A DNA stretch of 64,000 nucleotides from contig REBS01000088.1 in the NCBI GenBank assembly GCA_007692605.1, forward strand, positions 1 through 64,000, in the 5' to 3' direction. The position numbers were made by a program, and so were the translations under genes. Of this stretch, positions 2,911 through 49,485 are shown piece after piece; within the stretch, counting starts at the first letter, position 1; the number at the start of each line of letters is the position of its first letter. Below the pieces are notes generated by a model, which worked only from the letters and a program-made list of their open reading frames with translations, did no database searches and was not told the DNA's origin. The DNA is from Gemmatimonadales bacterium (lineage in GTDB: Bacteria > Gemmatimonadota > Gemmatimonadetes > Longimicrobiales > Gaopeijiaceae).

Positions 2911-4107
2911 TTACCGCACGCGAAAGAGCCCGGTCTCGATCGTCAGTCCGGGCCCGAATGCCATGGCCAGGACGGGGTCGTCGCGCTGGAGGTCACCACT
3001 CTCGAGGATCTGCTTGAGCACGAAGAGCACCGTCGCGCTGCTCATGTTGCCGTACCGGCGCAGCACCTCTCGCGAGGCTTCGAGCGCCTCAGGCCGGAGC
3101 GCCATCGACTCCTCGACCCGGTCCAGGATCGCCCGACCTCCCGGGTGAATCCCCCACCAGGGGATCTCGTCGGCCCGCACCCCGGCCCTTTCGAGCAGGG
3201 CACCGACCACCGGCTCGAGGTTGCTCTCGATGATCTGCGGCACATAGGTCGAAAGCTTCATCCGGAAGCCGTCGTCGCCGATCGTCCATGCCATGTCCTC
3301 CTCACCCTCCTCGGTCAGGTCGGTGTGGAAGGACCCGAACTCGAGCACGCGCCCCCGGGCCGGCGCATGGTCCGGCGCATGGGCCGACGCATGGTCCGAC
3401 GCATGGTCCGACGCTTGGGCCGACGCTTGGGCCGACGCATGGGCCGACGCATCCGGGGCACGCGCACTCACCAGGGCACCCGCGCCTCCATCGGCAAAGA
3501 CCGCCCCCGCGATCAGGTCGTCGGTGTTTTCGGTGAAGCGCAGGTGCAGCGTGCAGAGCTCGACGCACAACACGAGCACGACGGCCCGGGGATCATTGCG
3601 GCAGAAGGCCTCGGCCATCCTCAGCCCCTGGAAGGCGGCGTAGCAGCCCATAAACCCCAGGTGATAGCGCTGGGTGCTCCCCGAAAGCCCCAGGGCCCGC
3701 ACCACGTGATAGTCGGGCCCCGGCGCGAAGAACCCCGTGCACGAGACCGTGATCACGTGGGTGACGTCGCTCGGCTGCACCCCCGGCGTCTTCTCGACCA
3801 GTCCTCTCGCCAGCGCCTCGAAGTGCCTCTTCGCCTCGCGCGTGTAGACCTCGTTTCGGGTGTGCGTGCCGGGAGTCGGAAGGAGCGTCTCGGGGTCGGC
3901 GAAGAAGAGGGGCGACTGCGCATCCTCGTCGAAGTCGTCGATGACGCTGTGGCGCGTCTCGATCCCCGAGTTCCGGTAGATGCTCCGGATGATCCGGCGC
4001 ACGCCCTTTCGCTCGGAGCAGTGCCGCTGCATCAGCTCGCAGGCCCACTCCTGAGAATAGCTCGAGTCGGGCACCGAGGTTTCGAGGGCGTGCAGATAGA
4101 CCGGCAT
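2911..4107 (-). CDS. Type III polyketide synthase (chalcone/alkylresorcinol synthase-like)
   Basis: This 398-residue homodimeric thiolase-fold enzyme would extend an acyl-CoA starter with malonyl-CoA to form alkylpyrones or alkylresorcinols. The catalytic triad is complete: Cys155 in GFMGCYAAFQG, His321 in WWGIHPGG, and Asn354 in YGNMSSAT. Between residues about 215 and 250 an Ala/Ser/His/Asp-rich stretch encoded by 12-bp DNA repeats interrupts a region that is a surface loop in the family. A GGAGGG ribosome site lies before the ATG, and only 8 bp separate it from the upstream alpha/beta hydrolase-OsmC gene, so the two are surely co-transcribed. The fatty-acid desaturase follows on the same strand. 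A long-chain fatty starter is likely in this family but is inference here. Confidence 0.93.
   Translation of the reverse strand: MPVYLHALETSVPDSSYSQEWACELMQRHCSERKGVRRIIRSIYRNSGIETRHSVIDDFDEDAQSPLFFADPETLLPTPGTHTRNEVYTREAKRHFEALARGLVEKTPGVQPSDVTHVITVSCTGFFAPGPDYHVVRALGLSGSTQRYHLGFMGCYAAFQGLRMAEAFCRNDPRAVVLVLCVELCTLHLRFTENTDDLIAGAVFADGGAGALVSARAPDASAHASAQASAQASDHASDHASAHAPDHAPARGRVLEFGSFHTDLTEEGEEDMAWTIGDDGFRMKLSTYVPQIIESNLEPVVGALLERAGVRADEIPWWGIHPGGRAILDRVEESMALRPEALEASREVLRRYGNMSSATVLFVLKQILESGDLQRDDPVLAMAFGPGLTIETGLFRVR
3365..3448. repeat. In-frame 12-bp minisatellite, seven copies, inside the polyketide synthase gene
   Basis: Seven consecutive 12-bp units of the form GC(A/T)TGG(T/G)CCG(A/G)C run from 3365 to 3448, followed by a decayed copy. 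Since 12 is a multiple of 3, copy-number change keeps the frame and alters only the length of an Ala/Ser/His/Asp/Gln loop in the enzyme. Units differ at just two or three positions, which points to recent expansion. Confidence 0.85.
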
Positions 4108-4115
4108 CGGGGCCG

Positions 4116-5456
4116 TTATCCCTCCCCTTCCGCCGGCGCTTCCGGGTCCTTGCGGATCGTTCCGATCCGGACCCCCGCCTCCAGGGTGCGGTGGACCGGG
4201 CAGCGCGAGGCGATCTCGACCAGACGTGCGCGCTGGCCGTCGGAGAGCGGCCCCTCGACGGTCACCTCCCGGCTGATGTAGTCGACCCGGGGGTCATCGC
4301 CGTCGCGTCGCTTCTCGTGCCGCAGCGATGTCCGCACCTCCTTGACCGGCCATCCTTTTCGGTCGGCATACATGCGGACCGTCATGGTGGTGCAGGTGCC
4401 GAGTGCGGCGGCGAGCAGTTCGTACGGGGTCGGCCCCTGGTCCTCGCCCCCGACCGAAGCCGGCTCGTCGGCCAGGAGGTGGTGCTGCCGCGCCCGGATC
4501 TCGGTCTGGAAGCCCGACTCCCCGGTCCGGACCATCACCTGATCCCCTTTGGCCTTGTCTTCGACGGGAGACTCCTCATCGGACGCATGGTCTCCCGTGG
4601 GCGGGTCGGTCGAAGGCTCCTCGCCTTGCCCCACCCCTTCCGAGGCGGCGACGCGAGCATGCTGCGTGCCCTCCCCCGATTCCGGGTCGTCCCTGATCTC
4701 GACGTAGCGTCCCACCCATCCGGCGATCGCACGTGCCGCGTAGCGGGAATCCCGCTGATCGGTGAGCAGGTGATCGGCGCCATCGAGCGCAATGAAGCTG
4801 CGCGGATGCCTCGCCATGGTGAACAGGGTGCCGGCATGGTCGATCGAGACCACTTCGTCCACCGGGGAATGCAGGATCAGGAGCGCCCGGTCGAGATCGC
4901 GGACCACCTCCTTCATTCGGGCCTCACGAATATCCTCGACGAACTGCTGCTTCACCTTGAAGGGCCGGCCGGCCAGGTGCACGGTGGCCATCCCCTCGGC
5001 CTCGATCTCGTCGAAGGAGTCCTCCATGTGCTGGAGCACGTGTGCCGGATCCGACGGGGCCCCGATCGTCACCACCGCCCGGCAGCTCGGAACCTGATGC
5101 GCCGCATGAAGCACGGCCGCTCCACCCAGCGAGTGCCCGATGAGGATCTCGGGGGGCCCCCATTCGGCTTCCATGTAGGACGCCGCGGCCACGAGATCCT
5201 CGATGTTCGACGAGAAGTTCGTGTCGGCGAAGTCGCCTTCGCTCTCGCCCAGCCCCGTGAAGTCGAAGCGCAGGACCGCGATCCCCTCCAGATTGAGCGA
5301 CCGGGCCACGTTCACGACCGCGTTCAGGTTCTTCGAGCATGTGAAGCAGTGTGCGAACAGGGCCCAGGCACGCGGGGTCCCCTCGACGGGGAGGTCGACG
5401 CGGGCGGCGAGCTGATCGCCGGAAGCGCCCTCGAAGGTCACTCTCTGAGTGGCCAT
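4116..5456 (-). CDS. Alpha/beta hydrolase-OsmC fusion protein
   Basis: This 446-residue two-domain cytosolic protein has an N-terminal alpha/beta hydrolase (about 1-250) with the nucleophile elbow GHSLGG. It also has the acid region HSPVDEVV and the catalytic His region GADHLL. An acidic, low-complexity linker (about 255-310) leads to an OsmC/Ohr-type domain. That domain has the two expected cysteines, in GTCTTM and CPVHRTLE, which in OsmC proteins reduce organic hydroperoxides. The fusion is a known architecture, but its physiological substrate is not established. It lies between a START-like gene (44-bp gap) and the polyketide synthase (8-bp gap). That suggests protection or processing of lipids made by this operon. 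The ATG at 5456 fits the family start. Confidence 0.88.
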   Translation of the reverse strand: MATQRVTFEGASGDQLAARVDLPVEGTPRAWALFAHCFTCSKNLNAVVNVARSLNLEGIAVLRFDFTGLGESEGDFADTNFSSNIEDLVAAASYMEAEWGPPEILIGHSLGGAAVLHAAHQVPSCRAVVTIGAPSDPAHVLQHMEDSFDEIEAEGMATVHLAGRPFKVKQQFVEDIREARMKEVVRDLDRALLILHSPVDEVVSIDHAGTLFTMARHPRSFIALDGADHLLTDQRDSRYAARAIAGWVGRYVEIRDDPESGEGTQHARVAASEGVGQGEEPSTDPPTGDHASDEESPVEDKAKGDQVMVRTGESGFQTEIRARQHHLLADEPASVGGEDQGPTPYELLAAALGTCTTMTVRMYADRKGWPVKEVRTSLRHEKRRDGDDPRVDYISREVTVEGPLSDGQRARLVEIASRCPVHRTLEAGVRIGTIRKDPEAPAEGEG

Positions 5457-48435: not shown

Positions 48436-49434
48436 GTGCGTGCTATCGACCCTGCCCCCGTCAGGGCTCCCTACAACCCCATCCTCTCTCTCCTCCTCGT
48501 CTCCGTGTTGCTCGTGGTTCCCACGGGCTGCGGGTCCGACGGCGAGGACGTGAGCAGTTGGACGCCCGGGCCCCGCCCCGTCTCCGACGAGCGTCCGGTC
48601 CTGGCCGCGTCCGGCGACGTCGAGGTGGACCGGGGATCCACCTTTGCCGCCGTCAGCGAGAGCGGCGAAGGGGAGATCGTGGTGATCTTCACGAACGCGG
48701 ACGGGTGGGCCTACTTCGACGACGAGGGATATCTCACCGGGGTCTCCGTCGAGATCCTCGAGGACTTCTTCCGCTGGGTGGAATCGACCCGTGACGTCTC
48801 GCTCGACGTGGTCTGGTCCGAAGACGACGACTGGATGCAGTTCTACCGCAGGGTCCGCGACGCCCGGGGCGGAGTGATCGGGGCCGGCAACGTCACCATC
48901 ACCGACGAGCGCCGCCAGGAGCTGGACTTCTCGCCCGCCTACCAGAGCAATGTTGCGGTGCTGATCACCCACGAGGACGTTCCCGAACTCGAGTCCATGC
49001 AGAACGCCTCGGAGCGTTTCCGGGGATTCGCGGCACACCCCTATCTCGGGACGCTGCACGAGGAGCGGGTGAACCAGCTGAGAGAGCGTCGGATCCCGGG
49101 CCTGCGAGTCCTCCCCCTCAGCTCCAACGACGAGATCCTGGCCGCCGTCTCCGAATCGCCGGACCGGCTGGCCTGGATCGACGCTCACGCGTACTTCCGC
49201 GGGGTCGAGGAAGGGTTGCCCATCCGACGCCATCCGGTGGCCGACGACAGCTCCGAGAGCTTCGGGTTCATCCTCCCCCGTGGATCCGACTGGACCCCGC
49301 TGCTCGAGGAGTTCTTCCTCGAAGACGACGGCTACCGGAACTCCGAGCGGTACCGCGAGATCCTCCTCACCCACCTGGGAGAGGGGCTCAGCGAGCTCCT
49401 CGAGGAAGTTCGTGAAGTTCGTGAAGTCCGGTAA
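48436..49434 (+). CDS. Family-3 solute-binding lipoprotein, orphan
   Basis: This 332-residue lipoprotein (signal LLLVSVLLVVPTGC) has the amino-acid-type periplasmic binding fold (SBP_bac_3). Supporting features are an N-terminal lobe with YLTGVSVEILEDFF, the hinge region GAGNVTITDERRQELDFSPAY, and a second lobe with AWIDAHAYF. No permease or ATPase gene is near, so it may act as a sensor or be served by a distant transporter. The GTG at 48436 has AGGAG 6 nt upstream. The C-terminus ends EVREVREVR, encoded by a 9-bp tandem repeat that also supplies the TAA stop. It lies downstream of phoU, but a 137-bp gap makes co-transcription uncertain. Confidence 0.88.
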   Translation: MRAIDPAPVRAPYNPILSLLLVSVLLVVPTGCGSDGEDVSSWTPGPRPVSDERPVLAASGDVEVDRGSTFAAVSESGEGEIVVIFTNADGWAYFDDEGYLTGVSVEILEDFFRWVESTRDVSLDVVWSEDDDWMQFYRRVRDARGGVIGAGNVTITDERRQELDFSPAYQSNVAVLITHEDVPELESMQNASERFRGFAAHPYLGTLHEERVNQLRERRIPGLRVLPLSSNDEILAAVSESPDRLAWIDAHAYFRGVEEGLPIRRHPVADDSSESFGFILPRGSDWTPLLEEFFLEDDGYRNSERYREILLTHLGEGLSELLEEVREVREVR

Positions 49435-49467
49435 GTCCGGGAAGTTCGGGAAGTTCGGCAGGTCCGG
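49405..49467. repeat. 9-bp tandem repeat spanning a stop codon
   Basis: Seven consecutive 9-bp units of the type GAAGTTCG(T/G) run from 49405 to 49467. The fourth unit begins TAA instead of GAA, and this substitution is the stop codon of the solute-binding lipoprotein. Copies after the stop keep the same frame, so the original open frame probably ran on. Confidence 0.85.
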
Positions 49468-49485
49468 CAGGGCCGCCCGGAGGCA

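What the first reader, a model, noticed from the sequence alone, without database searches (positions are those of the whole stretch)
3365..3448. 12-bp minisatellite inside the type III polyketide synthase
Seven near-identical in-frame units insert about 30 Ala/Ser/His/Asp residues in a region that is a surface loop in chalcone-synthase folds. Copy number may vary between strains and tune enzyme behaviour, a phase-variation-like design seldom reported in such enzymes. Catalytic Cys155, His321 and Asn354 are untouched.
Basis: partly seen in the sequence, partly recalled or inferred. Interest (0 to 1): 0.52.

Follow-up and report, generated by a model that had tools for sequence, protein, structure and literature searches.

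The report
Repeat expansion in polyketide synthase loop
A 12-base DNA unit has been copied about seven extra times inside a bacterial enzyme gene, lengthening a turn of the protein that relatives also keep at varying lengths; this looks like ordinary repeat growth at a harmless spot, not a switch.

Summary
A 12-bp array (window 3357-3452, 8.0 copies, 91% match) lies in frame in the minus-strand gene 2911-4107, a 398-aa type III polyketide synthase with Cys155/His321/Asn354 intact. The best comparison is a congener (G001) with the same locus at about 90-93% DNA identity. Its gene is exactly 84 bp shorter and carries a single unit-like seed. The nearest outgroups are mostly short too, so seven units were most likely gained in the window's lineage. 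Outside the array the two genes are under strong purifying selection (dN 0.021, dS 0.258). All three clean kinds of unit change are non-synonymous. The insertion site is the most length-variable place in the family (105 sequences). One Balneolales relative has its own 27-bp duplication there. Comparable arrays occur elsewhere in the same genome, and two others checked also differ in length between the two species. A 12-bp unit keeps the reading frame, so it cannot switch the gene on or off. The best reading is ordinary slippage-type expansion in a permissive beta-turn, close to neutral. Variation within the species, and any effect on the enzyme, could not be tested here.

The parts
2911..4107 (-). 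type III polyketide synthase gene (398 aa) that hosts the array
   Evidence: Pfam Chal_sti_synt_C 1.2e-30 and Chal_sti_synt_N 5.1e-21; PDB sequence matches to type III PKS; model fold matches type III PKS at Z 47-49
3357..3452 (-). 12-bp tandem array as called by TRF, 8.0 copies, in frame
3355..3450 (-). eight 12-bp units read in the gene's frame, from GCGTCGGCCCAT (ASAH) to the worn GCGCCGGCCCGG (APAR)
3343..3468 (-). residues 214-255: the turn between strand 206-214 and strand 255-264 that holds the array; length-variable across the family
   Evidence: model; loop lengths in 105 homologues

Best explanation
It is a recently grown coding minisatellite. A single GCGTCGGCC-like seed, still seen in the congener, was amplified in 12-bp steps by replication slippage or unequal recombination in the window's lineage. 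It lies in a beta-turn of a type III polyketide synthase that tolerates insertions, so an added flexible Ala/Ser/His/Asp segment of 28 residues was not removed by selection. The frame is kept because the unit is four codons. The enzyme core remains under purifying selection and presumably works as an ordinary type III PKS. Shown: array, frame, 84-bp difference between two species, core constraint, site variability. Inferred: direction of change, slippage as the mechanism, and near-neutrality.
For: Congener G001 has the same locus and lacks exactly 84 bp; its loop reads SARTPEASAPGRV against SARAPDASAH...APARGRV. Nearest outgroup loops are short (13 in L089, 14 in L001 and L008, 9 in G002's L083, against 41 here), though G078 has 30. 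Of 368 codons compared outside the array, 58 differ synonymously and 16 non-synonymously; dN 0.021, dS 0.258. The clean unit variants (S/P, A/D, H/Q) are all non-synonymous although 10 of 36 one-step changes of the unit would be silent. The site after residue 219 has inserts of 4 or more residues in 10 of 105 sequences and of 10 or more in 5 of 105; no other site has more than one of 10 or more. L007 has an independent 27-bp-period duplication in the same loop, reached by 0 of 1000 codon shuffles. In 349,994 bases of this genome the array ranks fourth by TRF score. A 24-bp array is 7.4 copies here and 2.1 in G001, and a His-rich array differs by 18 bp.
Against: Only two closely related genomes carry the comparison, so expansion in one and loss in the other are told apart by parsimony alone, and G078 (69% identical) also has a long, non-repetitive loop. 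The non-synonymous unit changes are few (three clean sites). Neutrality is not proven: the insert is rich in Ala, His and Asp and could have a role.
Confidence: 0.85

Rival explanations
1. The array is a length-tuning element: unit number varies inside the population and changes the enzyme's behaviour (substrate entrance, dimer, partner docking), and variation is favoured.
For: Copy number differs between close species; all clean unit variants are non-synonymous.
Against: No population data; the unit is a multiple of three so the gene is never switched off; comparable arrays elsewhere in the same genome also differ between the species, which points to a general mutational process; the insertion site is generally tolerant.
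Confidence: 0.06
2. The unit number is partly an assembly artefact of short-read metagenome assembly (collapsed or expanded array).
For: The window comes from a fragmented genome of 188 contigs; arrays are known sources of assembly error (PMC6868369, search listing and start of abstract).
Against: The array is only 96 bp, units differ from each other in an ordered way, it lies 3.4 kb inside the contig, the frame is kept, and the flanks are collinear with G001.
Confidence: 0.05
3. The long array is ancestral in the genus and was deleted in G001.
For: Loss of units is as easy as gain in a tandem array; G078, a more distant relative, has a 30-residue stretch here.
Against: G002, L001, L008, L089 and L002 all have short loops; G078's loop is not a clear tandem repeat (332 of 1000 codon shuffles reach its score); the unit pattern was found in 1 of 121 family genomes, the window's own.
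Confidence: 0.07

Closest known systems
Coding satellites/minisatellites of prokaryotes (survey PMC6749651, passages read)
   Same: Tandem units of a length that is a multiple of three inside a protein-coding gene, giving amino-acid repeats.
   Different: Here the host is a type III PKS; short unit (12 bp) and one array only.
In-frame VNTRs of Mycobacterium tuberculosis pe/ppe genes (PMC12817950, abstract and passages read)
   Same: In-frame length changes of repeats inside genes.
   Different: There strains of one species were compared; here only two species. The phase-variable repeats shown there are in promoters.
Bacterial type III polyketide synthases such as PKS18 of M. tuberculosis (1ted); product class of this group (alkylpyrones and the like) is recalled
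   Same: Same fold (Z 48.9, rmsd 2.1 over 356 residues), same catalytic Cys/His/Asn.
   Different: PKS18 has about nine residues between aligned positions 235 and 245 where this protein has the array.

Membership tests
Type III polyketide synthase | Chalcone/stilbene synthase N and C domains | tested here: met
   Pfam PF00195 and PF02797 above curated cut-offs
Type III polyketide synthase | Cys-His-Asn catalytic triad | tested here: met
   C155, H321, N354 invariant in 43 sequences
Type III polyketide synthase | Thiolase-like fold of solved type III PKS | tested here: met
   AlphaFold model pLDDT 90.9; 1000 of 1000 chains aligned have Z 8 or more, best 49.2 with 4b0n_A
Type III polyketide synthase | Iterative condensation activity and product | not testable with these tools
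   needs expression and assay
Coding minisatellite / VNTR | Tandem units of 10 bp or more, beyond chance | tested here: met
   TRF score 143 against a maximum of 69 in 30 shuffles
Coding minisatellite / VNTR | Unit length multiple of three, in frame | tested here: met
   12-bp unit, whole-gene frame open
Coding minisatellite / VNTR | Copy number differs between related genomes | tested here: met
   84 bp (7 units) between G000 and G001; these are two species, not strains
Coding minisatellite / VNTR | Copy number differs between strains of one species | not testable with these tools
   one genome per species held
Phase-variable contingency locus | Unit change shifts the reading frame or alters a promoter | tested here: not met
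   12-bp unit inside the ORF, 84-bp difference keeps the frame

The most novel reading that the evidence does not exclude
Unit number varies within natural populations and sets the length of a flexible Ala/His/Asp arm that changes assembly, partner binding or substrate range of the polyketide synthase, making it a rheostat-like enzyme locus.
Probability: 0.06. Interest if true: 0.5.

Novelty: new member of a known kind. Interest (0 to 1): 0.2.

Why it matters
If the plain reading is right, this is a clean before-and-after pair: one seed unit in a close relative, eight units here, inside a well-studied enzyme fold. It marks a place where type III polyketide synthases accept long inserts, which may be useful for tagging or engineering. 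If unit number did tune the enzyme it would be an unusual rheostat, but nothing here shows that.

Tried and rejected
Phase variation in the strict sense was rejected: the unit is a multiple of three and the array is inside the ORF.

An RNA element was considered: Rfam gave 0 matches at gathering score in the window. Plus-strand ORFs across the array exist but no evidence for them was sought beyond the strong minus-strand gene.

Array spread from elsewhere: the pattern for about one and a half units occurs only in this array in the own genome, and a similar pattern in 1 of 121 family genomes, the own one. An 11-mer shared with the neighbouring gene (4582-4592) was noted; with one mismatch allowed, 5 matches against 2.2 expected, reached by 6 of 100 shuffles, so chance is not excluded.

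Distance of the loop from the active-site entrance could not be measured: model coordinates were not found in the script box.

A 39-bp array (L123) was looked up in G001, but its two halves lie on two contigs there, so no length comparison was possible. Coding status of the other arrays of the genome was looked at but not settled.

Gene neighbourhood: in 83 loci searched with three neighbours of the gene, only the hydrolase-OsmC neighbour was found, in L089 and L008; loci differ in flank length, and G001 was not in that set but is collinear by DNA.

A search of 395 phylum genomes gave 14 with a match at E 1e-40 or better, all of them already seen in the family search.

Papers: searches were searched; none of the papers listed held the phrase 'type III polyketide synthase'. 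This is a weak search of open-licence papers only. Passages were read of PMC6749651 and PMC12817950; the others were seen as listings.

One search was a first alignment with some minus-strand loci read on the wrong strand; it was replaced. From the 112 loci then held, 8 were left out of the loop count: L081 (the window itself) and L084, L085, L087, L088, L090, L091, L092 (same contigs as other rows). The length of 9 for L083 is counted from its row, since one search printed only the 40 longest. Alignments of the most distant rows (L093-L112) are less reliable.

Full report
What is there. The array is real. TRF reports 3357-3452, period 12, 8.0 copies, 91% matches, score 143, the top row of 56 in the window; the best score in 30 dinucleotide-preserving shuffles of the window was 69. 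It lies within the minus-strand ORF 2911-4107 of 398 aa. In the gene's frame the units are ASAH, ASAQ, ASAQ, ASDH, ASDH, ASAH, APDH and a worn APAR. The host is a type III polyketide synthase by Pfam, by PDB sequence matches and by fold: the AlphaFold model (mean pLDDT 90.9, pTM 0.91) matches solved type III PKS with Z up to 49.2. Cys155, His321 and Asn354 are invariant among 43 sequences.

Where it comes from. The closest whole genome, G001 of the same genus, carries the same locus with flanks at 90-93% DNA identity. Its gene is 1113 bp against 1197 bp, an 84-bp difference or exactly seven units, with a one-unit seed left (GAG GCG TCG GCC CCG GGG). The other near relatives mostly have short loops: L089 13, L001 and L008 14, L002 13 residues between the two reference positions, against 41 in the window and 13 in G001; G002 has 9. 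G078 is the exception with 30. The repeat pattern is found in 1 of 121 family genomes, the window's own. Gain in the window's lineage is therefore the simplest reading (inference).

Selection. Outside the array 368 codons were compared between the two genes: 294 identical, 58 synonymous and 16 non-synonymous differences, dN 0.021 and dS 0.258. The enzyme core is constrained. Inside the array the three clean variable sites (S/P, A/D, H/Q) are all non-synonymous, although 10 of 36 one-step changes of the unit would be silent. The number is small, but it does not suggest that the amino-acid sequence of the insert is guarded.

The site. In 105 homologues (the window plus 104 of 112 loci held then; 8 rows left out as repeats of others) the stretch from V213 to L255 has its mode at 11 residues (61 of 105); the window's 41 is the longest, and 7 of 105 have 20 or more. 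Inserts of 10 or more residues fall after residue 219 in 5 of 105; at every other site there is at most one. One relative, L007 (a Balneolales MAG by its title), has its own tandem duplication of period 27 there, a self-match that 0 of 1000 codon shuffles reach; G078 and L004 do not show this (332 and 993 of 1000). In the model the array lies between strands 206-214 and 255-264, pLDDT about 50-71, drawn partly as a helix at 220-233 that should not be trusted. In PKS18 (1ted) the matching stretch is the turn between residues 235 and 245. That it is on the surface is inferred; distances were not measured.

The genome. In 349,994 bases of the same assembly (window, the rest of its contig except 300 bases, and stretches of 20 of the 188 contigs) three arrays score higher. 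Three other arrays (two of those, and one scoring just below) were looked up in the congener: a 24-bp array has 7.4 copies here and 2.1 there, a His-rich 42-bp array differs by 18 bp, and a 39-bp array could not be compared because its halves lie on two contigs there. Unit-number change therefore looks like a general process in these genomes. That most prokaryotic satellites with long repeats have units that are multiples of three, and that many fall in genes, is reported in PMC6749651 (passages read).

Mechanism and verdict. Best reading (0.85): growth of a seed by replication slippage or unequal recombination in an insertion-tolerant turn of an otherwise conserved enzyme, with little or no effect on function. 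The strict phase-variation reading fails, since gain or loss of 12 bp keeps the frame. Tuning of the enzyme is possible but unsupported (0.06). Assembly error is unlikely (0.05) given a 96-bp array with ordered unit variants 3.4 kb inside a contig.

Organism. The genome handle has no name. Several genomes placed in the same family have contigs of the same lengths as contigs titled Gemmatimonadetes MAGs, so the window is most likely from Gemmatimonadota; that these are soda-lake sediments is recalled from the isolate names and fits papers seen as listings.

Noticed in passing
4587-4641: The neighbouring alpha/beta-hydrolase-OsmC fusion gene (4116-5456, minus) is also longer than in G001: the flanking matches imply about 60 bp more in the linker between its two domains. 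It does not look like a tandem repeat.
   Followed up: partly
L135:1284-1543: A roughly 260-bp dispersed repeat next to a 24-bp array: the query around it gave 21 matches in G000 and 19 in G001 (the query itself and both strands counted), some places matching on both strands, as a stem-loop element would; predicted fold energy -119.9 kcal/mol (no shuffle control).
   Followed up: partly
L113:131-190 and L122:6920-7001: Short repeats around ATGCGTATTYATGATA near the start of the congener's contig and in another contig of the own genome.
   Followed up: no
1-102: The window's contig and the congener's contig G001:C6 begin within 20 bases of the same place, as if a common repeat or graph break ended both assemblies.
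   Followed up: no
49404-49469: A 9-bp/27-bp array at the 3' end of the ORF 48436-49434 and just beyond it.
   Followed up: no
L125:18330-18435: A His-rich repeat (GHEHAGH type) in an open frame, 18 bp longer here than in G001.
   Followed up: partly
L004:4001-5203: This Balneolales relative has a separate insert of about 24 residues near its C-terminus, before the AMAFGPGL motif.
   Followed up: no
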